This document shows, piece after piece, positions 20,126 through 54,916 of a DNA stretch of 64,000 nt. The stretch lies in contig NZ_CP069338.1 in the NCBI RefSeq assembly GCF_016859125.1, positions 10,419,501 to 10,483,500 of the forward strand. The letters run 5' to 3'. The stretch is from Archangium violaceum (GTDB lineage Bacteria > Myxococcota > Myxococcia > Myxococcales > Myxococcaceae). Position 1 is the stretch's first letter, and each line of letters begins with the position of its first letter. A program made the position numbers and the translations under genes. The notes under the pieces are model-generated. The model was not told where the DNA came from. It saw only the letters and a program-made list of their open reading frames with translations, and did not search any database.

Positions 20126-20141
20126 GCGCCCGGAGCCCCGG

Positions 20142-20190
20142 TTCTCATCACCCGTCCACGGCGGCTTCATGCCGTCGAGGCGAGCCCCTC
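20142..20190 (+). repeat. Direct repeat copy B: decayed copy of the oxygenase 3' end
   Basis: The 20-base core at 20155-20174 is identical to 18763-18782. Read in the matching frame it gives VHGGFMPS in place of FHGGFMPA, but no oxygenase precedes it. It looks like a scar of a duplication or of insertion of the flavoprotein gene. Confidence 0.55.
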
Positions 20191-20309
20191 GAGCGAGGGT
20201 CACCCGTCGATTCCCGAGTGTCGGAAAACTGGCGCTCCCGGGGCTCCCTCTTAGGCTCCGGAGATTGAGCTGGAGCCGCTCCCTCGACTCTGGGAGAGGG
20301 GAAAACGTG

Positions 20310-26847: not shown

Positions 26848-26853
26848 GTGACC

Positions 26854-28554: not shown

Positions 28555-28567
28555 AAGGAAACGGGCC

Positions 28568-28951
28568 ATGGGACTCCAGATCGTCATGGGCGCCATGATG
28601 CAGTGCAGCTTCGGGTTGTCGCCCTCCTCGTTGATGGTGCTGCCCACCAACAAGGTGATGGGCACGACACCGGCGGCCAACATCATGGACAACAAGCCCT
28701 TCGTGAACATCCTCCCCTTCGGGATGTGCAAGTCGATGGCGAACCCCGCGGTGGCCGCGGCCACGGCGGCGAACAAGGGCGTGCTCACCCAGATGCCGTG
28801 CGTGCCCGCCACGGCGGCGCCCTGGGTCCCCGGATGCCCCAAGGTCCTCATCGGCAACATGCCGGCCCTGGAGAGCAACTCGAAGCTCATGTGCAGCTTC
28901 GGCGGCGTCATCCAGATCGTCATGCCCGGCCAGTTCACGGTGACGGAGTAA
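28568..28951 (+). CDS. PAAR-like T6SS spike-tip protein (DUF4280)
   Basis: A 127-residue protein of the DUF4280 type. It has GAMMQCSFG and NIMDNKPFVNILPFGMC, then VLTQMPCVPAT and a closing CSFGGVIQIVMPGQF. Four conserved Cys positions could bind a metal as in PAAR tips. DUF4280 proteins are regarded as PAAR-like caps for VgrG spikes. ATG 28568 is chosen with AAAGGAAA upstream; ATG 28526 overlaps the previous gene. It is followed three bases later by the TssA-like gene. Confidence 0.8.
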   Translation: MGLQIVMGAMMQCSFGLSPSSLMVLPTNKVMGTTPAANIMDNKPFVNILPFGMCKSMANPAVAAATAANKGVLTQMPCVPATAAPWVPGCPKVLIGNMPALESNSKLMCSFGGVIQIVMPGQFTVTE

Positions 28952-35492: not shown

Positions 35493-37139
35493 ATGGCGGG
35501 ACCCTTCCAGGAGCGGCTGGTCGTCTCACTCACCGTGACGATCGGCGGCACGGCGCACGCCATCCCTCCCGGCAACATCAAGTCCTTCTCGCTGGAGCTG
35601 CGCGGCTGGGGCCACGAGGGCCACGTCGAGTTCATCATCGCCGACAACCAGGGGCTCGGTGGGCAGCAGCAGGACACGCTCCTGGCCGACTTCCTGAAGC
35701 CGGATCTGGCCGAGGTGTCGCTCGAGTTGAAGTCCCTCCACACCGACCTTCCGGCGAAGCCGACCCCCACCTCGCTGACGGTGAAGGGCCTGGTACACGA
35801 CAAGACGCTCACCGAGCTCCGGGCCACGCCCGCGCAGGGAGATCCGATCCTCTACCGCCGCTATGGCGTCTCCTTCCGCGACGCCGCGCGCCTGCTCTGG
35901 TCGCAGCACTTCCCCTGCGTCCTCTACACGCAGAAGTCCTTCAAGGACGTGCTCGACGCGCACAAGGGAGACAAGATCTCCCTCACGTACGACTGGAGCG
36001 CCGTGCTGGACACCACCTGCCCGATGATCTTCCTCGGGTTGGATCCGGAGAAGGCGTCCAGCTTCTACGATCTCCTGCTCTGGTACGTGGACGGCCACAA
36101 CGGCGTGCTCGCCTATGACTACTCGACGCAGGGGTACGAGCTCTCCGCCACCAAGGACGGCACGGGCACGCCGCTGGAGCTGAAGCCCCAGGAGGTGGCC
36201 TCGCTGGAGGTCCGCTTCCCCGAGGTCATCCGCCACGACATGGCGGTGCTCAACGCCGTCGCCGAGGGCCCCCAGAACCAGGCCATCACCCAGACGAGCG
36301 CCGTCTCCGGTATCCGCCAGGACGTGCTGCTGCGCACCGCCATCGCGGACGAGGTGCAGGCGCGGGTGGACCTGGAGACGGCGCGGCTGAAGGTGCGCGG
36401 GCTGGAGCTGGAGCTGGAGTGGAACCGCTTCCCCGCGATCGCCTTCACCCCGGGCACGTTGGTGAAGCTGCCTTCCACCGCGGGGTGGAACGCCGCCGGA
36501 GTGCCCGCGAGCGAGACCTTCCGCGTCCGCCACATGCTCCTGCGGGGAGATGCCCTCCAGCCCGGTCCCGACGCGGAGCGCGACCAGCCAGACGCCGGCT
36601 TCCACTTCCAGATGCGCACCCGGCTGGAGCGCAAGGACGAGACCTGGGTCGAGCTGCCCGAGTACATCCCACCGCCCTACCCCCGCTACGTGGAGGGGCT
36701 CATCGTCAGCGAGGTGGGCGAGGACGCGGACGAGACGTGGCAGGCCTACACCGACGAGGCCACGTCGCTGGACGGCTACAAGGTGAAGATCCCTCTCTGG
36801 GAGGATCAGATCATCACCGCCCCCTTCAACCCCAACCTGCTGCCGGGCCACTACTACTTCCCGGCCTACAAGGGCGAGAAGGTGCTGGTGGGGCTCGACT
36901 TCCAGCGTGCGTGGATCAAACGCTTCCTCGACTGGCGCACCGGCGCCCGCATGCCCCAGGACGGCCAGGGCGTGCACCTGCTGATGGGCAAGACGACGCA
37001 GAGCAACACGTCGATGAAGCACTACTACGACGACGCCAGACCCGTGTTCCTGCTCAAGCGCACGAACGACAAGGACACCGGGACGCTCCGCATCCAGGAG
37101 GGCAACCTGTTCCTCCAGGTGAAGGAAGACGAGGGCTGA
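35493..37139 (+). CDS. vgrG: VgrG-type T6SS spike hub, lacking its own needle
   Basis: A 548-residue protein with a gp27-like hub. Visible are FSLELRGWGHEGHVEF, VKGLVHDKTL, YGVSFRDAARLLWSQHFP and LLWYVDGHNGVLAYDY, followed by an OB-like region with VKIPLWEDQIITAPFNP and YKGEKVLVGLDF. It ends at about GNLFLQVKEDEG without the beta-helical needle of classical VgrG. That needle appears to be the next gene. A short hairpin (37140-37159) follows the stop. It is paralogous to the VgrG at 47952-49883 (shared VLNA-x3-GP and DVLLRT motifs). Confidence 0.8.
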   Translation: MAGPFQERLVVSLTVTIGGTAHAIPPGNIKSFSLELRGWGHEGHVEFIIADNQGLGGQQQDTLLADFLKPDLAEVSLELKSLHTDLPAKPTPTSLTVKGLVHDKTLTELRATPAQGDPILYRRYGVSFRDAARLLWSQHFPCVLYTQKSFKDVLDAHKGDKISLTYDWSAVLDTTCPMIFLGLDPEKASSFYDLLLWYVDGHNGVLAYDYSTQGYELSATKDGTGTPLELKPQEVASLEVRFPEVIRHDMAVLNAVAEGPQNQAITQTSAVSGIRQDVLLRTAIADEVQARVDLETARLKVRGLELELEWNRFPAIAFTPGTLVKLPSTAGWNAAGVPASETFRVRHMLLRGDALQPGPDAERDQPDAGFHFQMRTRLERKDETWVELPEYIPPPYPRYVEGLIVSEVGEDADETWQAYTDEATSLDGYKVKIPLWEDQIITAPFNPNLLPGHYYFPAYKGEKVLVGLDFQRAWIKRFLDWRTGARMPQDGQGVHLLMGKTTQSNTSMKHYYDDARPVFLLKRTNDKDTGTLRIQEGNLFLQVKEDEG

Positions 37140-37200: not shown

Positions 37201-37797
37201 ATGGCCAAGCTGGTCTGCACCATCGAGATGGACAAGACGAATGGCATCACCGTGAAGGTAGAGGACCCTCAGGGTCAGATCACCCAGGTGATGACCATGG
37301 ACAGCCAGAGCATCACCATCAAGATGCAGAACCAGTCCAACACGAGCACCATCGTCCAGAAGGCCGACAGCATCACCGTCACCGTCCAGGACTTCACCGT
37401 CAACGCCGACACCATCACGCTGACGTCGACGAAGGACTCGAAGTGGACGAGCCAGCAGAAGCTGACGCTGGAGAGCACGCAGGACATGACCCTCACCTCC
37501 AGCGCGAAGCTCACCCAGAGCGCCACCCAGGACGCGAAGCTCTCCTCCACCGCCAACGTGAACGTGGAGGCCACCAGCAACATCACGCTCAAGGGCATGC
37601 AGGCCACCCTCCAGGCCACCGCGGGCGAGGCGAAGGTGGACGGCGTGATGCTCAAGCTGAACGGTCAGGCCCAGGCCGAGATGGCCGCTCCCCTGGCCAC
37701 GGTGTCCGCCCAGGGCAAGCTCAGCCTCGAGTCCACGGGCCTCGCGGACCTCAAGGGCACCATGACCAACGTCGGCGGTATCGTGAAGCTCGGGTGA
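37201..37797 (+). CDS. Beta-helical needle protein (VgrG gp5-C-like)
   Basis: A 198-residue protein made largely of short Thr/Ser/Ala-rich strands in register, such as SITVTVQDFTV, DTITLTSTKD and VNVEATSNITLKG. It ends in GKLSLESTGLADLKG and GGIVKLG. This is the make-up of the triple-stranded beta-helix at the tip of VgrG/gp5. With the upstream VgrG ending before that part, the two probably form one spike from two chains, which the DUF4280 protein would cap. Confidence 0.65.
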   Translation: MAKLVCTIEMDKTNGITVKVEDPQGQITQVMTMDSQSITIKMQNQSNTSTIVQKADSITVTVQDFTVNADTITLTSTKDSKWTSQQKLTLESTQDMTLTSSAKLTQSATQDAKLSSTANVNVEATSNITLKGMQATLQATAGEAKVDGVMLKLNGQAQAEMAAPLATVSAQGKLSLESTGLADLKGTMTNVGGIVKLG

Positions 37798-43500: not shown

Positions 43501-44347
43501 GGAGGAAGAGGGCTCGTACCTGCGCAAGGTGGACGCCTGGCTGGACCAGCAGGGCCTCATCGGCGAGCTGCGGGAGCCCTTCCGCCTGCCCTTCCTGGCG
43601 GCGAAGGAACTGGGACGCGCGGAGCTGGAGCGGGTGCTGGCCCGGCAGTGGAACGAGGCGGCCTCTCGCATGCTCCTGCCGCTGCTCGAGCGCTACCCGT
43701 TCAACCCGAACGCGACCGAGGAGGTGGACCCCGCCGATCTGGAGATGTTGCGCCGCAAGGACGGCGACTTCTGGCAGCTCGTGGAGCGGGTGTTCTCGCC
43801 GGTGTGCGTGGAGCGCGGCACGGAGTGGGCGCTGCGCAGTCCGCTGCGAGGGGGCAGGCTGGTGCTGCCGTCGCGGGTGCTGCCCACGCTCAGCCGGCTG
43901 GCGAAGATGTCGAAGACGCTGTGGGACGACAAGGGGCAGCCCCGGCCGTTGATGCTGCAGATGATGCCGCTGCCCCTGCCCGCTCCGCCGGATCCCGGGA
44001 GCTTCGTCACCATGGCGTCGCTCAAGTGCGGGAAGACGGCCGCGTTCGGCTACAACCAGAGCCCCGCCTGGCAGGAGTTCCCGGTGGAGTGGTGGGACCA
44101 GCAGACGGCCTCGCTCGTGCTGGAGGTGCGCTCGCCCAAGCGCGAGGCCAAGCAGTACCACTGGCTGGAGAAGGCCCGCTCGTCCTGGAGCTGCTTCCGC
44201 CTGCTGGAGTCCTCCACCCTCACCACCGATCAGCACCGGATGTGGCGTCTGAACAACCGCGGCGACGAGGCCTCCAAGCGCGTGCTGGAGATCAGCTTCG
44301 GCGTGAAAGGTGAGCCCTGGGCACCGTTCCGAGAGGTGCCGAGATGA
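40559..44347 (+). CDS. tssM: TssM (IcmF), inner-membrane core protein
   Basis: This 1262-residue protein is within the usual TssM range. It has one membrane helix near residues 16-36, a cytoplasmic GTPase-like domain with an intact Walker A GPAGCGKT (85-92), another membrane helix near 344-366 and a large periplasmic part. That part has an acidic/Ala-Lys spacer near 930-960. The C-terminal beta domain would contact TssJ. Start is GTG 40559. The stop overlaps the tssJ start by four bases. Confidence 0.9.
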   Translation: METLGKVWAVVSPHLVWVLLVLLVVGLGVALFWWWRKRRMSAPAVGEPRPMQANQLLKIRERFLNGLPWLNRAAIRDLPHVVVLGPAGCGKTKLIGLDVDWERQARQFLPSYTSDPLLQIYLGPDSVVQELSAPLLEDDSPQARTALRRLWKSSFSRQQRGVTIIALDVRWLADTAPDEVRRTAQLLRGKLNLISEMSRGPVEARVCLTNMDALEGYSDFAQLLHKHGVPLSFEIPRRGEEGKLATLLEAQEQYLALGLTSLPVDAFERLERFYSTGGRSFSALARFVTALLEGNTLSFKPSLSRVYLSSPSPEARASGVLSVTTEETSSQALRARYLRTHLRRCALIAAVCTLPVVAAYGHYYLLLKETQQLMKSFQQTAERLHDQKLESVGTLVEEKVDKAGESLDELWHAERYWPPLKKSFPKQKNELRQQLATAIREAHIRPALARCHEKLDECRPEQVVYLLAVLHSSEKQELGKFILSGLRNRHKWRWNSDDEEELSTSSSHDSRPTWVKSLKLNEAIVGDYVETSDSPWETPPSGANWARWPFKDELTRENQLKPWQLHLERLSNLLQGNRVQELLNAGPQALTEELNTLSEERARLQAWLDDSVLFADLPRVLDLLNDSRAGANVGQFAGIKSTIRTLDWLNDEENREQLSSVLRMEQEAFDGFKAVERMTAAELLTRDGLWEPRGGSGPFKVTVLQESFTFRPREHSLELLRMLIRHYETTGRMPFRGVGPHTSSLSLYGAVADASGNHLPEATGAEAGDASDVLSVLDRLQFDTKIKPLVDEFTQRLKNAQLSPEEAAARQEYVRRRMDQFSQAYREGLFMSVRDYRFFAASRTTLTKELSELTQPSSKLVDMLRDVANRANLEPLDGPYYEPLRNAVAPFKPVIQLMVQDKNGNYTAMDPYRALVAQLHDELNAVTKAGGDKGKAAKGSKPSADKAAAGEEASDDSEADGPAQLTDMLTPLGQVGLSMMLEEEGSYLRKVDAWLDQQGLIGELREPFRLPFLAAKELGRAELERVLARQWNEAASRMLLPLLERYPFNPNATEEVDPADLEMLRRKDGDFWQLVERVFSPVCVERGTEWALRSPLRGGRLVLPSRVLPTLSRLAKMSKTLWDDKGQPRPLMLQMMPLPLPAPPDPGSFVTMASLKCGKTAAFGYNQSPAWQEFPVEWWDQQTASLVLEVRSPKREAKQYHWLEKARSSWSCFRLLESSTLTTDQHRMWRLNNRGDEASKRVLEISFGVKGEPWAPFREVPR

Positions 44348-44856
44348 ACCGCACGCGCCTTGGGCCCGCTCCGCTGGTGGCGCTCGCCGCGCTGCTGCTG
44401 GGCGGATGCCTGCCCGGCCACGTCACCTTGAGCATCAAGTCCCCGCCCGGCACCAACCACGGGCGCCCGCTCTACATGATCGTCCGCACGGTGGATCCCA
44501 AGCAGTACTCCACCGAGTCGTACAACGACGTGGCCGCCAAGGTCATCTCCCCGGACGAGTCGGTGCTGCAGGCGGATGTCATCTATCCCGGCACCTTCCA
44601 GAACATCAAGGTGAAGGTGCCCAAGGCGGCGTCGGTGGCGGTCTCCTTCCTCTTCACCGCTCCGAATGGCTCATGGCAGATGTTGCTCAATGAGCCGCTG
44701 CCATCCTCGGTCGACATCGAGCTGATGGAAGGCCGCATCCAGACGGACATGTCGCCAGGACTCCCCTCCGGAGCCGAGGCCAAACCGCCCGAGGCGCCCA
44801 AGATGGAAGCGCCGAAGGTGGAGGCCCCGAAGGCGCCCGGAGCCGACAAGAAATAG
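44344..44856 (+). CDS. tssJ: TssJ-like outer-membrane lipoprotein
   Basis: A 170-residue lipoprotein (lipobox LLGGC, about 18-22) with a transthyretin-like strand pattern: VTLSIKSPPGTNHGRPL, YMIVRTVDPKQYSTESYNDV and IYPGTFQNIKVKVP. This is the TssJ layout. The C-terminal 40 residues are Pro/Glu/Lys-rich repeats of the EAPK type. It is the last gene of the plus-strand T6SS run and its ATGA overlaps the tssM stop. Confidence 0.8.
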   Translation: MNRTRLGPAPLVALAALLLGGCLPGHVTLSIKSPPGTNHGRPLYMIVRTVDPKQYSTESYNDVAAKVISPDESVLQADVIYPGTFQNIKVKVPKAASVAVSFLFTAPNGSWQMLLNEPLPSSVDIELMEGRIQTDMSPGLPSGAEAKPPEAPKMEAPKVEAPKAPGADKK

Positions 44857-44875: not shown

Positions 44876-45268
44876 TCAGAACGAAAGCCTGTTTAGCTTC
44901 TCTATTTCCTTCACGGCTACATCCCGATACAGCGGCACAACCTCTACGGCGAGGACGTCGCGCATTTGTTGGCGTGCGCCGTCAAAATCCCCTCTGTCTC
45001 GAAACTGGTACATCCGGTGGAGTGCATCGATGAGCCGGTTTGAGCCTTCGGTAATGCGACGCCGAATCTCATGAAGTAGAGCAGTGCCACTCTCCACACT
45101 GGCGAGGGCGGATTCCGCGTCGCTCTCGGGGATGGCCACCGTCGGGGCCGTGCGTTTGAGTAGATCGCGCACGTCATTGGTCAGTTCCAGAGGCTCCCCT
45201 CGCCGAACCCGGTTGTCCAGCACCCGTATCTCGTGCCAGTCGCCCTCTTCCTCTTCTACTGTCTCCAT
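44876..45268 (-). CDS. DUSAM-domain protein (myxobacterial family)
   Basis: A 130-residue cytoplasmic protein with the DUSAM pattern: DWHEIRVLDNRVRRGEPLELT, in parts, then APTVAIPESDAESAL, TALLHEIRRRITEGS, LHRMYQFRDRGD and the closing AVEVVPLYRDVA. DUSAM proteins are a large paralogous family in Myxococcales with unknown function. ATG 45268 follows GGAGAGG; a TTG six codons earlier is weaker. It lies 18 bases after the Cys-rich lipoprotein remnant on the same strand, and local GC is lower than in the T6SS genes. Confidence 0.8.
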   Translation of the reverse strand: METVEEEEGDWHEIRVLDNRVRRGEPLELTNDVRDLLKRTAPTVAIPESDAESALASVESGTALLHEIRRRITEGSNRLIDALHRMYQFRDRGDFDGARQQMRDVLAVEVVPLYRDVAVKEIEKLNRLSF

Positions 45269-45286
45269 GCATCGCCTCTCCTTCAA

Positions 45287-45701
45287 TCAACTGCGGGGCC
45301 TACACTTGCGGATTGGCCATTCGTGCTGTCCTTCACAATATCGGAGGCAGTCGTCACATTTGCCGGTCCATCCGTTGTTCTTGCAGCTGACGTAGGCCTT
45401 GATGCATCGCTGCTTCCACTCCGGTAGATCTTTGTTGTTGGCGAATTCGTCCTCCTCAACCATCGGCATTATCGGCATTGGCACGAATTCATCAACCATC
45501 ACTCCAGCCTCTACCGCCTCCTCTATGTCCGCAGCAGTGGCACCGCATGCTCCCACTGGGTCGTTATGGGTGCTTTTGGATGCAACAGGTCATGGTGTTG
45601 TTTCCGCAGTCGCTCAGACCCACAGCCACCGTACCAGCCAAGCAACCCGATGCGAGCACGCCCCACAACACAGCCGCTCCAAGGCACAGATCAATATTCA
45701 T
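45287..45701 (-). pseudogene. Frameshifted Cys-rich lipoprotein
   Basis: Reading from ATG 45701 gives a lipoprotein start (MNIDLCLGAAVLWGVLASGC, lipobox LASGC) that stops after 45 residues at 45564. Another frame, open from 45590 to 45287, continues as STHNDPVGACGATAADIEEAV and ends in a Cys/Trp-rich domain (CIKAYVSCKNNGWTGKCDDC, then CEGQHEWP). Removing one base from the TTTT run at 45574-45577 joins both into one protein of about 135 residues. It is either a real frameshift or a homopolymer error. Local GC is low, which suggests transfer. An exported immunity protein or small toxin is possible. Confidence 0.6.
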
Positions 45702-45813
45702 ACTTTCCACCAATCTAAAATCAGACGAGTTGGCCAGGGACGTCAGAGAGCGACAGGGCGTGACGGTCCGGCCCTGCACACCCGTTCGAGTAGGTCGGCC
45801 CTCCTTCCATTCC

Positions 45814-47694
45814 TCAGGCCAGCGCACGTACCTGGGCGTTCAGGGCCTCCAGCTCCGCCGAGATCCGCGCGCGAGCCGCCTCCAGCGGCTGCGAGGTGGC
45901 TGTTCCCGCATCCACCTGGGTCTCCAGCGAGTCGAGCGGCGCGAGGAGCTCCGTTCGGGCCGAGCTGACGCGGCCGGATAGCTGCTCCATCTGCGTCGCC
46001 GTCGCGTCCTCCACCCCACTGGCCCTCTGTTGGAAGCCGCTCAGCGTCGCCTCCACCCGGCCGGCCAGCTCCTCCTCGAGCTGCGCCTTGCCCTGCCTCG
46101 CCGTGTCGAGCCCGGTGCCCACCGACGAGCGGGTCGCGTCGAGCCCGGAGCGCATCTGCTCCTGGGAGGAGGCAATCTGGCTCTCGGCGGAGCTCCGGGC
46201 CGCGTTCAGGGGCTCGATGGATGTCTGGAGCCCCCCATCGAGGCTCCCCTGGAGCGTCCCGAGCTGCTGCTGGACCTGGGACTTCAGCGTCTCCACCTGG
46301 GAGGCCACCTGCTCCTTCAGGGTCCCCACCTGGCCTACTGCCTGATCTCGAGCAGTGCCAATCTGTTGCACCACGCTGGCCACCACCTGATCCACCTGTG
46401 TCATGGCCTGCTCGATGGCGCTCTGGATGGACTGGGTCAACGTGTCGATCTGCTGGAGGAGCTGCTGCTGCATGGTCTGGACCTGCCCCACGGCCTGGGC
46501 CTGGACGTTCTCCACCTGCGCCAGGATCTGGTCCTGCACCGTCGTCATCTGCTGGGCCACCTGACTGGAGATTGTCTGGAGCTGGGTGGTGATCCGCGTG
46601 ACGACCTGGCCGATCGCCTGGATGGCTGGATTCACCAGCGGCTTGGGCAAAGCCGAGGCGGGAATGGCATCCAGCAGATCGGTGGCCCGGGCGAGCAGGG
46701 CCTGAAGTGTGCCAACCAGGGTCTGGAACAAGGATTGGAGGGCACTGAGCTGCGCCGGCAGCGCCTCCAGGAGGGCCAGGAGTTGCTCCTTGAGCGCATC
46801 GATCTGAGCCAGGAGGGTGTCGAGCGTGGCGAAGGTCGCATCCAGGGTCTGCTGGAGGGGCGTCTGGATGGCGGCGATGCTGGCGAGCGCCCCCTGTACG
46901 AGCGAGTCGAGGCCATTGCCCACCTGGGTGATGAGCGTGTCGATCTGCTCCTGGACCTGATCGATCAACGACTCCACCACCTGGATCTGCCCGCCCAGGG
47001 ACTCCACCTGCCCGGACAGCGTCCCCTGCAAGGTGTCGAGCGCCTGGGAAGCCTGCGCCTTCGCGCTGTCGAGCGACCCGGCCACCTCGGTCTCCAGCGA
47101 GTCGAGGAGCTCGGTGGTCGTCTGGGCCACGCCCTGGACCTGGGAGCGCAGCGGTGCGAGCCCCGCTCGGAGCTGCTCCACCCGTTGCTTCACCTCGGCC
47201 TTCAGCGACGTCCCCGCGGATTGGATCTCCTCCTGGAGGGACCGCAAGGTCTCGGATGGCGTGGCGACCGTGGCATCCACGGCCTGGGAGAGTTCGGAGG
47301 TCCTCGCGCCAGCGCTCTCTCGCGCCGAGGTGATCTGTCCGAGCAGGGATTGCGTGGAGGCAGAGAGTTGAGCGGCCGTGTCCTTCAACTCCTGCTCCAG
47401 CCGCGCCCGCGTCCGCGCGATGAGCGCCCTCCCCTGCGCCCGGCGGCGGTCATCGAGCCCGGCGGCGAGCACCTCGCACTTCTGCCCGAGCTCCTGCTTC
47501 AGCGCCTCGAGCTCCGCCTGGGCGGACTGCTCCTGCTCGTGGGCCTTGCCCTCCAGCGCCTCGCAACGGGCCGAGACCTCGGAGTCGAGCTCCTCGAGGG
47601 GACCCCGCACGCGGCCGGCGGACGCCCCGAGTTGCTGCTCGAGGATGCCCACCTCGGAGGCCGTCTCGTCGAATCTGGCCCACAGCGCCTTCAT
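45814..47694 (-). CDS. Large Ala/Gln-rich coiled-coil protein of the VgrG island
   Basis: A 626-residue, almost wholly helical protein with no signal peptide. The outer parts are charged heptads such as ALKQELGQKCEVLAAGLDD. The middle (about residues 230-400) is more hydrophobic, with IDALKEQLLALLEALPAQL and QTLVGTLQALLARATDLL. A Gln-rich stretch (QVQTMQQQLLQQIDTL) follows. It resembles apolipoprotein-like or pore-forming helical bundles. ATG 47694 lies four bases after the stop of the upstream 74-residue gene. No family is recognised; effector, adaptor or scaffold loaded on the upstream VgrG are all possible. Confidence 0.65.
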   Translation of the reverse strand: MKALWARFDETASEVGILEQQLGASAGRVRGPLEELDSEVSARCEALEGKAHEQEQSAQAELEALKQELGQKCEVLAAGLDDRRRAQGRALIARTRARLEQELKDTAAQLSASTQSLLGQITSARESAGARTSELSQAVDATVATPSETLRSLQEEIQSAGTSLKAEVKQRVEQLRAGLAPLRSQVQGVAQTTTELLDSLETEVAGSLDSAKAQASQALDTLQGTLSGQVESLGGQIQVVESLIDQVQEQIDTLITQVGNGLDSLVQGALASIAAIQTPLQQTLDATFATLDTLLAQIDALKEQLLALLEALPAQLSALQSLFQTLVGTLQALLARATDLLDAIPASALPKPLVNPAIQAIGQVVTRITTQLQTISSQVAQQMTTVQDQILAQVENVQAQAVGQVQTMQQQLLQQIDTLTQSIQSAIEQAMTQVDQVVASVVQQIGTARDQAVGQVGTLKEQVASQVETLKSQVQQQLGTLQGSLDGGLQTSIEPLNAARSSAESQIASSQEQMRSGLDATRSSVGTGLDTARQGKAQLEEELAGRVEATLSGFQQRASGVEDATATQMEQLSGRVSSARTELLAPLDSLETQVDAGTATSQPLEAARARISAELEALNAQVRALA

Positions 47695-47698
47695 CGGC

Positions 47699-47923
47699 TC
47701 AGGGCTCCAGCTCCGCCAGCTCGGCGTCGAGCGCGTCGATCTGGGACGAGAGCTCCGAGACGGCCGACTCGGCCTCGGGGCGGAGGCTGGCGATGGCGTC
47801 CACCACCCCGCTGACGAGCGACTCGAGCTCGGCCCGGGTGCTCCCGACGCGAGCACCCACGGAGCCGCCAAAGGACTCCAGCTCCCCTCGGAGGTCCGTC
47901 ACCTGGGCACGCAACTCCTGCAT
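47699..47923 (-). CDS. Small coiled-coil protein of the VgrG island
   Basis: A 74-residue helical protein starting MQELRAQVTDLRGELESFGG and ending SSQIDALDAELAELEP. Acidic, with heptad repeats like the outer parts of the next, larger coiled-coil protein, from which it may be a detached N-terminus. It starts 28 bases after the VgrG stop and ends four bases before the next gene. AGGAAG precedes the ATG. Confidence 0.6.
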   Translation of the reverse strand: MQELRAQVTDLRGELESFGGSVGARVGSTRAELESLVSGVVDAIASLRPEAESAVSELSSQIDALDAELAELEP

Positions 47924-47951
47924 GGACTTCCTCCCTACCCCAGCCGGGGCA

Positions 47952-49883
47952 TCAGCGCAGCTTTCCGAGCGCCACCTTGGCCTCCGCCGCCGCGCTCGAG
48001 AGCGGGGCCGCCTTACCCGACATCCCCGAGAGCGCCCCGGAGAGCGCGGCCTTGGCGGCGGACACCTTGGCCTTCACCTCGGCCCGAGCGGACTCGAGCG
48101 CGGCCACGGTCTCCGTGGTGGCGGCCTCGATGCGGCCCTTCACGTTCGCCACCGCGCCCTGGTAGGCGGTCGTGGTCTCGCCGATGGCACCGCCCACGCC
48201 CAGGGCGAGATCTCCCTTGGCCGCCTCGACCTGGGGCGTCACGTCATAGGTGGAGCTGGCGGGCGCGACGCCCTGCTTCTCCTCGACCTTGATGAGAAGG
48301 TTGCCCTCGCTGATGCGAACGGTCTGAGTGTCCCCGGCCGAGACGCGCTGGAGGTTCCACACCGGGTTGGCTTCCTGGTAGTCGTGGGTGATCGCCGTCT
48401 GGCTCGTCTTGTTCTTCCCGAGCAACATCTGATCGCCCTGCCCGTCCTGAGGCAGGCGTACGGTCTCGCCCCAGTCGAGGAAGCGGTGCAGCTCGGCGCG
48501 ATCGAAGTGGAGGGCCAGCAGCACGCGCTCGTTCTTGTAGGGCGGGAAGTAGAAGTGCCCCGAGAAGAAGTGCGGCTGCGCGGGCACGCTCACCGTCTTG
48601 TTCCACAGCGGCACCGTCACCCGGTAGTTGGAGACGGAGGTCTTGTCGTCCTCGACGACGAACCAGGACCGGTCCGTCTCCTGTCCCCCGGGGCTGTGGA
48701 CCTTCCCCTCGACGTAGAGGGGATAGCGCGGCGCGCGGTACGCGGGAAGCGTGGGCACCGGGTCGGTCTTCTGCTCGAGCAGGGCGGACATCTCCAGCGA
48801 GTAGCCGGCATCGGGAGACTGCTGCTCGTCGTAGGGGCCCTGTCGAAGAGCGCGGAGCTCCAGATCCAGCGCGAGCACCCGGAGGTCCTCACCGGTGCCC
48901 CTCAGGTCGGGGAGCCAGTGGAAGCCCTGGAGGCGCAGGAGCGCACCGGGGTGCACGGCCACCGTGGGGAACTGCTGGAAGGTCACCTGGAGCCGCCGCT
49001 GCCGGAGCTTCAGCCGGCTCTTCTCGAGCGTCTGACGTTGCTCGGCCTCGGAGGCGATGGGGGTGCGCAGGAGCACGTCGTGGGAGATGCCCTGCGCGGC
49101 CTGGTCCTGCGCCAGCGCCACCGCGGTGGGCCCGTTGGCGAGCGCGTTGAGCACACGGGCGCCGTGGCGGATGGGAGCGGGGAGCTGGACCTGGACATCC
49201 ATGCGCTCGACTTCGCGGCTGTCGAGCACGGCCGCGCGTCCCGAGGAAGACTTGCTATCGGATAGGACGTACTGGTCCTGCTGGCTGTCGTAGGTCCACA
49301 CGCCGTTGCGCGTGTGCACGAACCAGAGGACGAAGTCGTAGAAGCTGGTGCGCCGGTCGTCCGAGCCCAGGGCGAGACAGAGCAGCGGCTGCTCGGCCTG
49401 GAGCACGTCCCAGTCATAGGAGAGGGTCAGCGGCCCCTTGTGCGCGTCGAGCAGGTCCACGAGCTTCTTCTGGGTGTGCAGCTCGGTGGGGCGGTGCTGG
49501 CGCCAGAGCACCTGGGCGGGATCGGCGAACTCGAGCGAGTAGAGACGGAAGGCGCGCTCCTCTCCCTCGTGCGGCCCGTGGGAGAGCCCGGCGAGGCTCC
49601 GGGCCCGGACGAGCCCCTGGACGACGAGCGGGCCGGGAGGAGTGACCTCGGTGGGGTACACGCCGGCCACGGAGAGCCGGACCTGGATGAGGTCGTTCTT
49701 CTTGAAGGCGACGAAGAGGGGCGCGTCGGCCTTCTCCAGCGCGGTCCAGAAGGACACCGAGGCGGTGAAGCCATGATTCGCGAGCCGCACGGCGAAGTGC
49801 TTCACCTGGCCGCCGGGAATGGAGAAGGACTCACCCCCGATGGTGAGCGAGAACTCGAGCTTCAGCTTCTCCTGGAAGGCCAT
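47952..49883 (-). CDS. vgrG: Second VgrG-type spike protein with helical tail
   Basis: This 643-residue paralogue of the VgrG at 35493 shares the hub pattern LEFSLTIGGESFSIPGGQVKH, in parts, VLWFVHTRNGVWTYD, VLNALANGP and SHDVLLRTPIAS. The OB-like part has TVPLWNKTVSVPAQP, YKNERVLLALHFD and a final GNLLIKVEEKQG. Where a needle would start, it carries a helical Ala/Lys/Glu-rich tail of about 90 residues. The lipase gene lies 16 bases upstream and coiled-coil genes follow, the layout of an orphan vgrG-effector island. Confidence 0.8.
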   Translation of the reverse strand: MAFQEKLKLEFSLTIGGESFSIPGGQVKHFAVRLANHGFTASVSFWTALEKADAPLFVAFKKNDLIQVRLSVAGVYPTEVTPPGPLVVQGLVRARSLAGLSHGPHEGEERAFRLYSLEFADPAQVLWRQHRPTELHTQKKLVDLLDAHKGPLTLSYDWDVLQAEQPLLCLALGSDDRRTSFYDFVLWFVHTRNGVWTYDSQQDQYVLSDSKSSSGRAAVLDSREVERMDVQVQLPAPIRHGARVLNALANGPTAVALAQDQAAQGISHDVLLRTPIASEAEQRQTLEKSRLKLRQRRLQVTFQQFPTVAVHPGALLRLQGFHWLPDLRGTGEDLRVLALDLELRALRQGPYDEQQSPDAGYSLEMSALLEQKTDPVPTLPAYRAPRYPLYVEGKVHSPGGQETDRSWFVVEDDKTSVSNYRVTVPLWNKTVSVPAQPHFFSGHFYFPPYKNERVLLALHFDRAELHRFLDWGETVRLPQDGQGDQMLLGKNKTSQTAITHDYQEANPVWNLQRVSAGDTQTVRISEGNLLIKVEEKQGVAPASSTYDVTPQVEAAKGDLALGVGGAIGETTTAYQGAVANVKGRIEAATTETVAALESARAEVKAKVSAAKAALSGALSGMSGKAAPLSSAAAEAKVALGKLR

Positions 49884-49899
49884 GACTCAGGCGCTCTCA

Positions 49900-51834
49900 C
49901 TATTCCGTCTTGTTCTCGTCCTTCCCGGCACGAGCCGCGAACTCCAACTCCTTCTTGCTGGCCTTGAAGGCGAGCCGCGACATCACTGTCCTGCTCAGCC
50001 AGTAATAGTGGCGCAGGAAGTCCGCGGATTTCCACGCTGTGTTGCGGTTGTACTCGACGATCTTATCAGACGGGTGATACGGCCCTCCGTAGATCATCAA
50101 CCAGACCAGGTTCGGGGTCCCATGCCCCAGCAGCAGGTCATCGAATTTCGAGGGGATGATACCGTGCTGCCCGAAGCGGGCGGTCCGGTACGGGACCGCC
50201 ACCTTCGTCCCAAATGGCGTCTCCTCTCCGCCCCAGGGCACTTTGTCCTTCGGATCCTCAATCATGTACACGTTCTTGGCGGACTCCCCAAGACCGGCAT
50301 GAAGCGCCAGGACGGAGAACGTCTCCTCATCCAGCCCTGGCGCGCTGAACGCGACACACTTCGTCTGATCCCTGCCCAGGCTGTGCGCCAGCGTATAGAA
50401 GCGAAGGGCCAGCGCACCGCCCTGGCTATGCCCTGTCACGATCGTCTTGCTGTCAAGCTTCCAGCCGTTGTTCTTGAGCATCTCCAGGATGATGTCCCGC
50501 ACCGCTTCGAATCCCTGTCTGCTGATGCCCTTCGGGTCCGCGTTGCCCAGGGCTCCCGTCGTCACGTCATGCGCCTTCCAGGAGTCGTCCATCTGCGGGT
50601 AGGACGTGGTTCCGGTGAAGCTGACGATGAAGTGATCCTCTCCCTTGACGTTGCGCCCCTTCCAGATCGTCACCTTGACGGAGGGGTGCCACTCCAGACC
50701 CATCCGAGTGAAGGTCTCGAAGCTCTCCTCGGAAATCTGCTGGGTGAAGGTCCCCACCACCTCGTAGGTGTTCGGGAGGGGTCCCCAGCTCCCGTTCGCA
50801 TCCGTCTCGAAGACCGTGGGCCGGCATGGGATTTTGGTGCCCACCTCGAGCGGCATGTAGCCCAGGAGCATGGCGATGCCCTGATAGAAGGCCAGCTCGG
50901 ACTTGAGCTCGGGCATGATCTTCGTGCGGACATGCTCGACGTACTTCGCCTTGACCTTGGGATTCGTGCTGCTCTTGGCGACCCCCATCATCTGGAACGT
51001 CTGCTGCATCAATTCGAAGCCATCGGTCACACCCGGAAGGTCGGGAAAGGGCCCCAGGAAATCGAGGCGCTCCACCGCTTCCGCCAGCAACCTCGCGCTG
51101 GCCTCGAGATGGCGCTGGGAAAGGCTCGAGGCCTTGAGGATCTTCTCCATTACCCGCTCCGACCAGTCGAGTACCCCCAGAGGAGCGGAGAGGCCATCCT
51201 GGAGGATGAGATCGAGCTCGATGGCCGAGTCCGGGAGGATGGAGCGTGCATCGACATCCAGGAGGGCGTGCTTGATCGCCTTCGCATTGCCCAGCGAGTT
51301 CGCCCAGCGGATGGCCCGGGTGCTGAGGTCTTGCGTGATGTCATTCACGGCATTCACGCCGAGCAGCAGGTCCGCGATCCTCTCGACCGCGAGACTCTTG
51401 GCGACCGTCTTCCGAGAGCCCGTCGAAGAAGTGACAGTGTCGTACGAGCCCAGCCGCACATGCTGCACCCCCTGCTCGTCCTCCAGGCCCTGGTAGTTCC
51501 CGGGCGGAAAGGCGAAGACGATGTCGTCTTCCTCGAGCTCCTGCTTCTTGGAAGGCACGAGGGTGCGGGTCTTCTCGTTCCACTTCCCATGGATGAAGGT
51601 CTGCTTCTTCGTGACGACCCCATACTCATGCGGAGTCGCGACCTTCACGCTCTTGAGCAGGGTGAGGAGCTTGTTCAGCTTCTCATGCTGCTCTTGCAGG
51701 TCCACATGGGGCAGATGATCGAGCGATGTCTGGGTGCTCACCCACCTGACCTGTTGGTAGACAGTCTGCAACGTCTTCCGTTTGAGGTTCAGACTCCAAA
51801 GAAAGAGCGGAGTGGTGGTGGTGAGCTTTTTCAT
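49900..51834 (-). CDS. Class-3 lipase-like protein, candidate T6SS effector
   Basis: A 644-residue protein. The last 300 residues hold a class-3 lipase domain with the strand DHFIVSFTGTTSYPQ, nucleophile elbow TGHSQGGAL (Ser near 468), an Asp in MIEDPKDKVPWGG and later His candidates. The N-terminal 300 residues are helical and unrecognised. There is no signal peptide, fitting delivery by the VgrG encoded 16 bases downstream. ATG 51834 is used although no clear ribosome site precedes it; an in-frame ATG about 39 codons upstream is possible. GC looks lower than in neighbours. Phospholipase activity against rival membranes is inferred. Confidence 0.75.
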   Translation of the reverse strand: MKKLTTTTPLFLWSLNLKRKTLQTVYQQVRWVSTQTSLDHLPHVDLQEQHEKLNKLLTLLKSVKVATPHEYGVVTKKQTFIHGKWNEKTRTLVPSKKQELEEDDIVFAFPPGNYQGLEDEQGVQHVRLGSYDTVTSSTGSRKTVAKSLAVERIADLLLGVNAVNDITQDLSTRAIRWANSLGNAKAIKHALLDVDARSILPDSAIELDLILQDGLSAPLGVLDWSERVMEKILKASSLSQRHLEASARLLAEAVERLDFLGPFPDLPGVTDGFELMQQTFQMMGVAKSSTNPKVKAKYVEHVRTKIMPELKSELAFYQGIAMLLGYMPLEVGTKIPCRPTVFETDANGSWGPLPNTYEVVGTFTQQISEESFETFTRMGLEWHPSVKVTIWKGRNVKGEDHFIVSFTGTTSYPQMDDSWKAHDVTTGALGNADPKGISRQGFEAVRDIILEMLKNNGWKLDSKTIVTGHSQGGALALRFYTLAHSLGRDQTKCVAFSAPGLDEETFSVLALHAGLGESAKNVYMIEDPKDKVPWGGEETPFGTKVAVPYRTARFGQHGIIPSKFDDLLLGHGTPNLVWLMIYGGPYHPSDKIVEYNRNTAWKSADFLRHYYWLSRTVMSRLAFKASKKELEFAARAGKDENKTE

Positions 51835-52088: not shown

Positions 52089-54299
52089 TCAGTGAGACTT
52101 CATCTCCATGCTGACGCGGGCGGGCGCATCCCCGGACGAGGATGAACCAGAGCCGGACGAGCCGCCGGTGGAGACGGACGCGGCCTTGTCCTCGGCCATG
52201 GCGGCCTTCTCCAGGGCGGCCTTCTCCAGGGCCAGCTTCATCAGGGCGCTCTCGTCGGCGGCGCGACGGGCCTCGCGCTCCTTGTAGCGGCGGATGGCGG
52301 GCGCCATGATCTCCCCGATGAGGCCCCGGTAGTCCATGCCGGCGCCCTGGGCGATGAGCACCAGGTCGCTCCAGCCCGGCGTGAGGCCCGGCAGCGGGTT
52401 GCACTCGATGAAGTAGATGCGGCCCTTGTCGTCCATGCGGAAGTCGATGCGCGCCACGTCGCGGCACCCCAGCGCCATGAACGAGTTGCGCGCCGCCGCC
52501 CTCAGCTTCTCCAGCAGCGCGGGCTCGAGCTTCGCCGGCGCGTCGTAGCGGATGCGATCCGTCCAATCCAGCTTGTGCTCGAAGCTGTAGATGGGCGTCT
52601 TCTCCGTCTTGTCCAGGAAGACGATCTCCATGGGCGGCAGCACGCGCGGGCGGCGCTCGCCGAGCAGGCCCACGGTGAACTCACGCCCGCCGATGTACTC
52701 CTCGATGAGCGCGGGCTGCTGGTACTTGGTGACGATCTCCTTCACCACCTCGCGCAGCTCGGCCTCGTTGTGGCAGACGCTCTTGCTCACCACGCCCTTG
52801 GAGGAGCCCTCGGCCACCGGCTTCACCATGAGCGGGAAGCTGGTGAAGTCCTTGTTGAGCCGCTCCTTGCCCGTGTGCATGAGCTGGAAGTTGGGCGTAT
52901 GGATGCCGGCCTGGCGGACGATCTTCTTGGCCAGTGCCTTGTCCAGCGCGATGGAGAGCGTGGCCGGATCGCTTCCCGTGTACGGAATGTCCAGCAGCTC
53001 CAGCATGGCCGGCACCTGGCTCTCGCGGTTGCGGCCCTTGAAGCCCTCGGCGATGTTGAAGACGATGTCCAGCGGCGTGCTGGCCAGCACGCTGGGCAGC
53101 TCCGCCGTGGCCTCCAGGTCCACCACCTCGTGGCCCCACGAGGCAATCGCCTCGCGGATGGCCTGCAGCGTGGTGGGCGAGTCGTACTCGGCCTCGCTGT
53201 CCTCCACGGAAGCGCCTTCCGCCACGGGCTTCACGCGCTTGACGTTGTAGGTGAAGCCCACGCGCAGCGGGCCCGACTTGCGCGTCGGCTTGCCCTGGCG
53301 CTTGCCGTCCTTGATCTTGTAGCGCCGCGCCGCGCTCTGGATGATGGCGTTGACGACGCCGTCCAGGTGCATGCCCTCCAGGGCCGCGGCGGCGTAGATG
53401 CCCGCGCCCGGCTCCAGGCTGGGCAGCGCGTTGAGCTCCAGGAAGTACGGCACGCCCGCGTCGCTCAGCCGGAAGTCGATGCGCCCCAGATCCCGGCAGT
53501 CGAGCACCTGGAGGATCTTCATCGACATGTTGCGCATCTCCTCGGCCACCTTCACGGGAAGGTTGGCCGGGGCGCTCACCTTCACGGCGCTCTCCCGCTT
53601 CGTCTTCAGCTCGTAGTCGTAGATGGCGTACTTGCGCCCGGCGACGGCGGCCGGGTCGATGTCGTACTCCACCGGACTGAGCACGCCGTCATGGTCGTTC
53701 TGCACCGCCGCCAGGTAGGGGACGGTGATGTCCTTGCCGTTGATGAACTCCTCGACGAGGACGCCGGCCGGGTAGCGCGACAGCGCCTGCGTCACCTTCT
53801 CGCGGGCCTGCTCGACCGTCTCGGCCACCGACTCCTGGGTGATGCCCTTGGAGGAGCCCTCGAAGTTGGGCTTGATGATGACGGGGAAGCGCAGATCCTC
53901 GACCTTGAGCTCGTTGAGCTTCTCGACGAACTGCCAGCCGGGGGTGCGGATGCCGTGCTTGGAGAGGACGAGCTTGGTGAGCTGCTTGTCCAGCGTCACC
54001 GCCAGCGCGTACGCGTCCGAGCCGGTGTACGCGAAGCCGAGCTCCTCGAAGAGCGCCGGGTAGAAGGCCTCGCGGAAGCGGCCGCGGCGGCCCTCGGCGA
54101 TGTTGAAGATGAGGTCCGGGCTGTAGGCCTCGAGCCGGGCGACGGTGCGGGAAGCCGGGCCGCTCACCTCGAAGCGCTCCAGACGGTGGCCGAGCCGCTC
54201 GATGGCGGCCGCCAGCGTGTTCACCGTCTCCTGGGTATCGAACTCCGCCTCGTCTTCCGAGTCGGACAACCTGAGGTTGTAGGTCAGCGCGATGCGCAA
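52089..54299 (-). CDS. Tandem D-Ala-D-Ala-ligase-like ATP-grasp protein
   Basis: A 736-residue fusion of two ligase-like units (about 1-350 and 360-690). Each has an N-terminal domain (RIALTYNLRLS; RVGFTYNVKRV), a FNIAEG motif, the ATP-grasp core (PVIIKPNFEGSSKGI; PLMVKPVAEGSSKGV) and a metal-binding end (FLELNALPSLEPG; FIECNPLPGLTPG). A Ser/Gly/Ala-rich tail closes it. Substrates are unknown; ligation of two amino acids or of a peptide is expected. Start TTG 54299 with GAAGGGG upstream overlaps the RDD gene by 16 bases; an ATG at 54335 is the alternative. Confidence 0.85.
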   Translation of the reverse strand: MRIALTYNLRLSDSEDEAEFDTQETVNTLAAAIERLGHRLERFEVSGPASRTVARLEAYSPDLIFNIAEGRRGRFREAFYPALFEELGFAYTGSDAYALAVTLDKQLTKLVLSKHGIRTPGWQFVEKLNELKVEDLRFPVIIKPNFEGSSKGITQESVAETVEQAREKVTQALSRYPAGVLVEEFINGKDITVPYLAAVQNDHDGVLSPVEYDIDPAAVAGRKYAIYDYELKTKRESAVKVSAPANLPVKVAEEMRNMSMKILQVLDCRDLGRIDFRLSDAGVPYFLELNALPSLEPGAGIYAAAALEGMHLDGVVNAIIQSAARRYKIKDGKRQGKPTRKSGPLRVGFTYNVKRVKPVAEGASVEDSEAEYDSPTTLQAIREAIASWGHEVVDLEATAELPSVLASTPLDIVFNIAEGFKGRNRESQVPAMLELLDIPYTGSDPATLSIALDKALAKKIVRQAGIHTPNFQLMHTGKERLNKDFTSFPLMVKPVAEGSSKGVVSKSVCHNEAELREVVKEIVTKYQQPALIEEYIGGREFTVGLLGERRPRVLPPMEIVFLDKTEKTPIYSFEHKLDWTDRIRYDAPAKLEPALLEKLRAAARNSFMALGCRDVARIDFRMDDKGRIYFIECNPLPGLTPGWSDLVLIAQGAGMDYRGLIGEIMAPAIRRYKEREARRAADESALMKLALEKAALEKAAMAEDKAASVSTGGSSGSGSSSSGDAPARVSMEMKSH

Positions 54300-54916
54300 G
54301 GCTTTCCCCTTCTGGACTTCTTGAACGTGCGGCACCGGCGGACCCGGGCCGCGGACAAAAACCGGCCTGGGACGCGAGCGGGCGCCACGGGCGTGCGTGC
54401 AGCAACCGTTGCTCCGGCGACGACCTTCCCGTCCACCACCTGCGTCTGGGCCCAGGTATCACCGAGCCGCCAACCAAGCGGATCCCTCACCACGCGCAGG
54501 GCCTCGATGCCCCCAATGACCACCAGACCCGCCAGACCGGCCACCAGGCCGAGGGGCGGAGGCATCATCCCCAGCAGGACGATGAGCGCCAGGGGTGCGT
54601 TGCGCAGGGTGCTGTCGCGGTGGCGCGCGGCCGACTGCGTGGGCAGGTGCATCACCTTCACGCCGAAGATGCGCTTGCCCACGCTCTGGCCCTGGAGCAT
54701 GCCATCGGCCAGCAGCAGGAAGAGCAGCGCCACCACGCCGCCCGCGGCGCCGCACACCACGTGGAGTCCCCACGCCACGGCGACGTCCACGATGCGCGCG
54801 CCCAGCCTCATCCACAGCGAGGCCTTGGGATAGGGCGAGCCGAGCTCCTCCCCATCGTGCACCACGCGAAGGCCGGGACGGCGGGGGGCGGAGTAGACCG
54901 GATGCGAGGCGCTCAC
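54284..54916 (-). CDS. RDD-family membrane protein
   Basis: A 210-residue RDD protein. The motif SLWMRLGARIVDVAVAWGL has the Arg and Asp residues that name the family, followed by helices AAGGVVALLFLLLADGML and PLALIVLLGMMPPPLGLVAG and the GQSVGKRIFGVKV signature. Function of RDD proteins is mostly unknown (some act in ion transport). GTG 54916 overlaps the upstream DUF4177-like gene by four bases. Confidence 0.8.
   Translation of the reverse strand: MSASHPVYSAPRRPGLRVVHDGEELGSPYPKASLWMRLGARIVDVAVAWGLHVVCGAAGGVVALLFLLLADGMLQGQSVGKRIFGVKVMHLPTQSAARHRDSTLRNAPLALIVLLGMMPPPLGLVAGLAGLVVIGGIEALRVVRDPLGWRLGDTWAQTQVVDGKVVAGATVAARTPVAPARVPGRFLSAARVRRCRTFKKSRRGKPCASR

What the first reader, a model, noticed from the sequence alone, without database searches (positions are those of the whole stretch)
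44876..51834. Minus-strand VgrG effector island facing the T6SS cluster
Lipase, VgrG-2, a small coiled-coil, a 626-residue coiled-coil, a Cys-rich lipoprotein and a DUSAM protein run in one direction with tight spacing. This is the layout of a vgrG island. The parts other than lipase and VgrG have no known T6SS role, so effector, adaptor and immunity functions may be new.
Basis: partly seen in the sequence, partly recalled or inferred. Interest (0 to 1): 0.7.

Follow-up and report, generated by a model that had tools for sequence, protein, structure and literature searches.

The report
Secretion hub module plus acquired genes
Next to a myxobacterial type VI secretion cluster, three genes form a conserved machine part (a second spike hub and its long helical partner), while a lipase on one side and a broken lipoprotein with its partner on the other look like later additions, so this is not one coherent effector island.

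Summary
The six-gene minus-strand run exists but is a composite. (1) VgrG-2 and the two coiled-coils are a conserved module: present in 40 of 40 relatives fetched, beside tssJ/tssM in 39. VgrG-2 models as a hub like Francisella PdpA/VgrG, with a 94-residue helix instead of a beta-helix needle. The coiled-coils are one protein by origin (fused in 27 of 39 loci), with length-variable arms around an invariant proline-rich centre: probably a helical hairpin carried by VgrG-2. (2) The lipase, 16 bp upstream of vgrG-2, is an acquired gene with an invariant Ser-Asp-His set. No fetched relative has it there and none of its seven homologous loci shows genes of this T6SS. T6SS cargo is plausible, not shown. 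(3) Cys-rich lipoprotein and DUSAM protein are a foreign two-gene cassette (GC3 0.63-0.65 against 0.90-0.93). In 30 of 30 lipoprotein-anchored loci DUSAM follows directly, and 12 genomes have the cassette without any such T6SS hub. Here the lipoprotein gene is frame-broken and DUSAM intact. That suits a polymorphic toxin-immunity pair, not immunity to the lipase. The T6SS resembles the Francisella type. I found no paper on DUSAM.

The parts
47952..49883 (-). VgrG-2: PdpA/VgrG-like hub (gp27 and OB parts) with a C-terminal helix of about 94 residues in place of a beta-helix needle
47699..47923 (-). small coiled-coil, 74 aa: N-terminal piece of the helical partner, separate in this lineage
   Evidence: ORF; separate in 12 and fused to the large one in 27 of the 39 loci where both were found by phmmer
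45814..47694 (-). 626-aa helical protein: two length-variable arms around an invariant proline-rich centre (residues about 343-357)
   Evidence: periodicity about 3.6, arms variable; invariant columns; AF2: helices broken at 343-353; blocks 1-170 at pLDDT 78-95 and 541-626 at 84-92, blocks 231-460 at 37-55
49900..51834 (-). class 3 lipase-like protein, 644 aa, with a roughly 350-residue N-terminal part without a Pfam or NCBIfam match; rare, acquired
   Evidence: PF01764 E 1e-5; Ser470 (GHSQGG), Asp527/Asp530 and His571 invariant in the 4 aligned sequences; 3 hits among the 8000 candidates scored; 8 of 145 genomes incl. own, six of them weak; GC3 0.84
45564..45701 (-). N-terminal piece of the Cys-rich lipoprotein (signal and lipobox), ends in a stop
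   Evidence: 62% identical to residues 4-50 of intact homologue P0125
45287..45556 (-). Cys-rich C-terminal piece in another frame
   Evidence: 70% identical to residues 54-138 of P0125; matches in 53 of 145 genomes incl. own
44876..45268 (-). DUSAM (DUF2379) protein, partner of the Cys-rich lipoprotein
   Evidence: PF09543 3.5e-46, TIGR02267 2.2e-44; directly downstream in 30 of 30 lipoprotein-anchored loci, this window being one
35493..37139 (+). VgrG-1, core hub paralogue (ends where VgrG-2's helical tail begins)
   Evidence: no Pfam match
37201..37797 (+). separate spike protein, 198 aa, best PDB sequence match Francisella VgrG
   Evidence: E 0.0029
44344..44856 (+). tssJ (IglE-type), convergent neighbour
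   Evidence: PF22361 1.3e-31

Best explanation
A three-gene module of a Francisella-like T6SS, with two unrelated acquisitions at its ends. VgrG-2 is a second hub: as a trimer it would cap the Hcp tube like PdpA/VgrG (inferred from fold and paralogy), but its C-terminus is a helix that would form a coiled-coil stalk where other hubs carry or bind a beta-helix spike. The small and large coiled-coils are one protein by origin (shown by fusion) that folds back at a conserved proline-rich turn into a long hairpin (inferred), docks on the VgrG-2 stalk and is carried or fired with it, as an alternative tip or cargo carrier (inferred). The lipase is a strain-specific gene captured just upstream of vgrG-2 and perhaps delivered with it (inferred). 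The lipoprotein/DUSAM cassette is a spreading two-gene unit, probably a lipoprotein toxin or surface factor with its cytoplasmic immunity partner (inferred); here the lipoprotein gene is broken and the partner survives (shown).
For: Shown: vgrG-2 and large coiled-coil in 40 of 40 fetched relatives, tssJ and tssM in 39; lipase, Cys piece and DUSAM in none of these or of 19 named loci, genomes overlapping. VgrG-2 in 49 of the 52 order genomes with a hub of this kind (one weak coil-only genome dropped). Five clusters without vgrG-2 also lack the coiled-coils beside tssJ, with 5 to over 10 kb seen beyond it. PdpA-like fold; separate Francisella-VgrG-like spike; TssC best PDB match IglB. Fused coiled-coils in 27 of 39. 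Invariant centre, variable arms; model with confident arms and a break in the centre. GC3 split. Cassette: 30 of 30 lipoprotein-anchored loci, 25 of 30 from the DUSAM side; counts per genome correlate, rho 0.85.
Against: No secretion, binding or toxicity data. The VgrG-2 helix and the middle of the large coiled-coil have low pLDDT; hairpin pairing was not measured on coordinates (none available). G097 and G100 keep a T6SS of this kind without VgrG-2 anywhere in the held genome, and G047, G068 and G075 have second clusters without it, so the module is not essential to the machine. In some loci (L120, L124, L128) one or more genes lie between the coiled-coil and tssJ. Lipase homologues show no linkage to this T6SS. 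The toxin-immunity reading of the cassette rests on pairing and distribution only; pairing from the DUSAM side has 5 misses in 30.
Confidence: 0.62

Rival explanations
1. True vgrG island: lipase is the effector, the large coiled-coil an adaptor, lipoprotein or DUSAM the immunity, all one functional unit.
For: Tight same-strand layout, lipase 16 bp from vgrG-2; an outer-membrane lipoprotein is the immunity to a T6SS lipase elsewhere (Tli3, start of abstract in the listing).
Against: Lipoprotein and DUSAM pair with each other in 30 of 30 lipoprotein-anchored loci, occur in 14 genomes without VgrG-2, have foreign GC3; the lipoprotein gene is broken here; lipase absent from the relatives' loci.
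Confidence: 0.1
2. The large coiled-coil is itself a secreted membrane-active effector (amphipathic alpha-helical toxin) and VgrG-2 its dedicated carrier.
For: Amphipathic helices of period about 3.6, Leu-rich conserved centre, apolipoprotein-like Pfam score below cut-off.
Against: No transmembrane-grade segment in the window protein (highest 19-residue mean 1.41; of six relatives printed one overlong ORF reached 1.63); no shared extra gene beside it in the relatives' ORF maps that could be its immunity (read by eye); such Pfam scores are common for long helices; conserved across genera rather than polymorphic.
Confidence: 0.2
3. The coiled-coil is a length-setting or scaffold protein, tape-measure-like, that never leaves the cell.
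For: Total length varies from about 445 to 885 aa beside a VgrG-2 of near constant length.
Against: Invariant centre and variable arms fit a hairpin better than a linear ruler; clusters of the same kind lack it; length not compared with sheath length.
Confidence: 0.12
4. The lipase is an unrelated enzyme that landed upstream of vgrG-2 by chance.
For: 0 of 7 homologous loci show genes of this T6SS; transposase-like genes surround one of them; 8 of 145 genomes.
Against: 16-bp spacing to vgrG-2 and a large uncharacterised N-terminal part suit a cargo protein; a 601-aa protein with a recalled LysM-like start and a GHSLGG lipase domain lies beside a related cluster in G068 (32% over 87 residues of the lipase, 5e-7).
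Confidence: 0.42

Closest known systems
Francisella PdpA-VgrG central spike (6u9e/f/g)
   Same: gp27/OB hub chain with a separate short VgrG-like spike; IglE-type TssJ, IglB-like TssC
   Different: here two hub paralogues exist, and VgrG-2 ends in a long helix; a length-variable helical partner is encoded next to it
VgrG1 of Pseudomonas (4mtk) and classical VgrG
   Different: no Pfam/NCBIfam VgrG match, no fused beta-helix in the model
M. xanthus vgrG2-tsxEI locus (PMC5801462, passages read)
   Same: a second VgrG with neighbouring genes in a myxobacterium, non-redundant with VgrG1 (43% identical there)
   Different: there vgrG2 is an orphan away from the T6SS cluster with an effector-immunity pair; here the neighbours are a conserved helical protein and the cluster itself
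SitA/SitI polymorphic lipoprotein toxins delivered by outer membrane exchange (PMC5562445, PMC8546572, passages read)
   Same: multi-copy lipoprotein plus partner in one operon, scattered in myxobacterial genomes
   Different: no room for an escort domain of about 375 aa; lipoprotein only about 140 aa and Cys-rich; nuclease activity and delivery untested
T6SS lipase effectors (Tle families)
   Same: GXSXG lipase beside vgrG
   Different: no immunity candidate beside it; sequence relation to the Tle families not tested

Membership tests
VgrG / gp27 hub | gp27-like fold with OB part | tested here: met
   VgrG, PdpA and phage hub chains head the lists; model residues 3-535
VgrG / gp27 hub | match to Pfam/NCBIfam VgrG models | tested here: not met
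   none at E 0.01; so filed by fold and paralogy only, as a hub protein of the PdpA kind
VgrG / gp27 hub | beta-helix needle in the same chain | tested here: inconclusive
   model shows a helix 549-642, at low pLDDT
Francisella-type T6SS | split hub and spike, IglE-type TssJ | tested here: met
   (spike match weak, E 0.0029)
Francisella-type T6SS | sheath phylogeny within that class | not tested
   only best PDB hit: IglB 380.7 bits against 355.7 for the next; no tree built
vgrG effector island | variable cargo and immunity genes beside vgrG | tested here: inconclusive
   downstream genes conserved; upstream slot variable and holds the lipase here
T6SS lipase effector (Tle) | GXSXG with Asp and His | tested here: met
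   invariant in 4 of 4 aligned sequences (one covers only the C-terminal half)
T6SS lipase effector (Tle) | T6SS-dependent secretion, cognate immunity | not testable with these tools
   no adjacent immunity candidate; upstream neighbour is a D-Ala-D-Ala-ligase-like gene
DUSAM / DUF2379 | family model above cut-off | tested here: met
   156.9 bits, cut-off 21.1
SitA/SitI | family escort domain (about 375 aa, defines each SitA family by PMC8546572) | tested here: not met
   intact full-length homologues read are 127-147 aa; not filed as SitA
toxin-immunity pair | tandem pairing, many alleles per genome | tested here: met
   25 of 30 from the DUSAM side
toxin-immunity pair | toxicity relieved by partner | not testable with these tools
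   needs a bench test

The most novel reading that the evidence does not exclude
Myxobacterial Francisella-type T6SSs carry a second, needle-less hub whose spike is replaced by a helical stalk that presents a long, length-variable helical hairpin: a new kind of T6SS tip or cargo carrier, open to strain-specific cargo such as the lipase. Beside it, the Cys-rich lipoprotein/DUSAM cassette would be an undescribed polymorphic toxin-immunity family of myxobacteria.
Probability: 0.3. Interest if true: 0.78.

Novelty: new variant of a known kind. Interest (0 to 1): 0.52.

Why it matters
If right, contractile injection tips need not be beta-helical needles: a hub can end in a helical stalk carrying a hairpin of adjustable length, testable in free-living myxobacteria instead of a listed pathogen. 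The lipoprotein/DUSAM pair gives a function hypothesis for a domain named only as unknown, on which I found no paper in the held library (two hits, both about etanercept in rats).

Tried and rejected
Immunity role of DUSAM for the lipase: rejected because DUSAM follows the Cys gene in 30 of 30 lipoprotein-anchored loci and occurs in genomes without this T6SS.

SitA membership: considered for the lipoprotein and not adopted (too short for an escort domain; one search found no Cys-rich or DUF2379 mention).

Anti-phage defence: PADLOC gave nothing for lipase, DUSAM or the Cys proteins; the 19 hits for the coiled-coil (ZorA, LmuB, JetC and others) look like long-helix similarity and were discounted. 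The same goes for the Pfam/NCBIfam hits of the coiled-coil and its Foldseek matches, headed by SMC-like coiled-coils with TM-scores near 0.1-0.2.

Phage or plasmid home of DUSAM: no match in phages; one on Myxococcus stipitatus plasmid pYRE, 38% identical, not preceded by an annotated same-strand Cys gene (that gene table is incomplete).

Promoter, RNA-family and repeat scans were not run. A solved-structure sequence search with the lipase found nothing at E 0.1.

Dropped or weak rows: G134 (coil-only match). L127 gave no coiled-coil because my search interval missed it, though both are seen. L149 (partial Cys match) and L160 (pair elsewhere in the locus) count as misses in the 25 of 30. In one search, 57 of 57 Cys cores had DUSAM 28-64 bp downstream, but about half of those loci were picked because they hold DUSAM, so I rest on the 30 lipoprotein-anchored loci, the best match per genome, 30 of 240 matches in 53 genomes. 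Lipobox count: 23 of 54 with a strict and 43 of 54 with a loose pattern; some loose ones look dubious. One search scored at most 28 candidates per genome and only 8000 candidates, so those counts may be low. The N-terminal Cys query was out of frame by my own slip, so its absence there means nothing; the other Cys piece and DUSAM carry that conclusion. An earlier count said 26 of 30; 25 is right. In one search some upstream ORFs may be spurious.
Full report
WHAT IS THERE. The window lies in a 12.68-Mb single-contig genome; its closest named VgrG-2 homologues are from Archangium, Hyalangium, Vitiosangium and Corallococcus. A T6SS cluster runs on the plus strand to tssM and tssJ. Convergent with tssJ lie, in order of transcription, lipase, VgrG-2, a 74-aa and a 626-aa coiled-coil protein, a Cys-rich lipoprotein and a DUSAM protein. 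Upstream of the lipase, about 250 bp away, is a double D-Ala-D-Ala-ligase-like gene (52089-54335). The lipoprotein is broken into two frames.

THE CORE MODULE. The two sets share genomes. In the 40, VgrG-2 and the large coiled-coil are present in 40, tssJ and tssM in 39 (in L128 neither is found in the stretch, other genes intervene). In the 19, VgrG-2 and the large coiled-coil are present in 19 and tssJ in 18; L014 ends first. In L120 and L124 one or two genes also lie between coiled-coil and tssJ. Lipase, Cys piece and DUSAM were found in none. The small coiled-coil is a separate ORF in 12 loci and part of one long ORF in 27; in L127 my interval missed it. So the two are one protein by origin. 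Its total length runs from about 445 to 885 aa (start codons uncertain), while the 107 longest VgrG-2-type hits of the protein search are mostly 640-660 aa.

THE COILED-COIL. In 40 aligned sequences conservation peaks in the middle (positions about 376-450 of small plus large) and the arms vary in length. In 20 sequences the centre has invariant P345, L349, P350, K351, P352, L353, V354, P356 and A357 (numbering of the 626-aa protein). Hydrophobic residues repeat with a period near 3.6, not the 3.5 of a classical coiled-coil, though single stretches reach 3.52-3.54. No 19-residue segment of the window protein reaches 1.6 on the Kyte-Doolittle scale (maximum 1.41); of six relatives printed, one overlong ORF reaches 1.63. 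The model is all helix, broken at 343-353 and at three or four lesser points; both ends are confident (blocks 1-170 at 78-95, 541-626 at 84-92) and the middle is not (pTM 0.45). I infer a hairpin in which the two ends lie together; I had no coordinates to measure contacts. Foldseek matches have TM-scores of about 0.1-0.2 and mean little.

THE LIPASE. It matches class 3 lipase weakly; Ser470, Asp527/530 and His571 are invariant in the four aligned sequences (which Asp acts is inferred). Three proteins were found among the 8000 candidates scored, and 8 of 145 genomes including its own have a match, one at 39% and six weak. None of the seven other loci (L162-L168) shows genes of this T6SS in the stretch (about 5-8 kb each side); in L167 my tblastn did not recover the lipase either, L162 holds a 30% match to the 1738-aa Ig-repeat protein of the window, and canonical T6SS genes were not looked for. 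On the other side, a 601-aa protein with a lipase domain (GHSLGG) and a LysM-like start (recalled by eye) lies behind the Ig-repeat gene of a related cluster in G068 (L181 3074-4879). In 25 of the 40 relatives I could pick a same-strand ORF ending shortly before vgrG-2: 10 form one family (VipB N-terminal piece in 4 of 4 scanned, VipA-like piece in 2), 7 another (MshEN domain in 2 of 2 scanned), the other 8 differ, none is the lipase. So the slot is variable and this strain filled it with a lipase.

THE LIPOPROTEIN/DUSAM CASSETTE. Starting from the Cys piece, the 30 best loci, one per genome and including this window, all have a DUSAM gene directly downstream on the same strand (30 of 240 matches in 53 genomes). 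From the DUSAM side 25 of 30 loci have the Cys core directly upstream; the five misses (L132, L139, L146, L149 partial, L160 for the queried copy) show no shared replacement by eye. All 53 genomes with the Cys family have DUSAM; 7 more have DUSAM alone; 85 of 145 have neither; counts correlate (rho 0.85). Fourteen genomes have the cassette without VgrG-2 (G081 and G100 of these do have a hub of this kind, 12 have none) and ten the reverse. Genomes carry up to 13 Cys and 27 DUSAM domain hits. Distances in the two families correlate over 54 non-redundant pairs (Mantel rho 0.40, 0 of 999 permutations), which common descent alone could give. The second copy in this genome lies among transposase-like genes (the word transposase is recalled from the look of the sequences). 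A lipobox-like motif precedes 43 of 54 Cys cores by a loose pattern, 23 by a strict one. This is how lipoprotein toxin-immunity pairs such as SitAI are laid out (PMC8546572, passages), but the proteins are too short for the escort domain, so I do not call it SitA. A broken first gene with an intact second gene is what loss of a toxin and retention of immunity would leave.

LITERATURE. M. xanthus is described as having one T6SS gene cluster (PMC10433427, passages), with VgrG1/VgrG2 and TsxEI (PMC5801462, passages). Searches for DUSAM/DUF2379/TIGR02267 and for Francisella-like or related T6SS in myxobacteria (listings only) showed no title on this module; most subscription papers are not in that library.

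VERDICT. A real gene run with a partly wrong reading: one conserved, unusual T6SS module plus two acquisitions.

Noticed in passing
window 26848-28554 and 28526-28951: A protein with an AMP-binding-enzyme match (PF00501, 4e-10) and a DUF4280 protein (6e-37; recalled as PAAR-like) lie in the T6SS cluster; both recur in L170, L171 and L173, DUF4280 alone in L172 and the AMP-binding one alone in L175.
   Followed up: partly
window 20079-25295: 1738-aa protein of about nine HYDIN/ASH-type Ig-like domains next to the T6SS cluster; related long genes lie next to tssJ in five clusters that lack VgrG-2 (L178-L182).
   Followed up: partly
L097, L099, L105, L107, L108, L118, L119, L121, L126, L129, upstream of vgrG-2: A 430-500 aa protein family with a VipB N-terminal piece (4 of 4 scanned) and in 2 a VipA-like piece, upstream of vgrG-2: a possible sheath-derived baseplate or adaptor protein.
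   Followed up: partly
L169, L173, L175: A further divergent cluster type in some genomes (TssC 54-55% to the window's) with tssK/spike facing away from tssB/tssC and no vgrG-2 module.
   Followed up: partly
L181 3074-4879: A 601-aa LysM-like plus lipase-domain protein (GHSLGG) near a divergent T6SS cluster, a candidate effector.
   Followed up: partly
NZ_CP102771.1 46373-46756 (L177): DUSAM gene on Myxococcus stipitatus plasmid pYRE without an annotated same-strand Cys gene before it.
   Followed up: no
window 52089-54335: Tandem double D-Ala-D-Ala-ligase-like protein of 748 aa.
   Followed up: no
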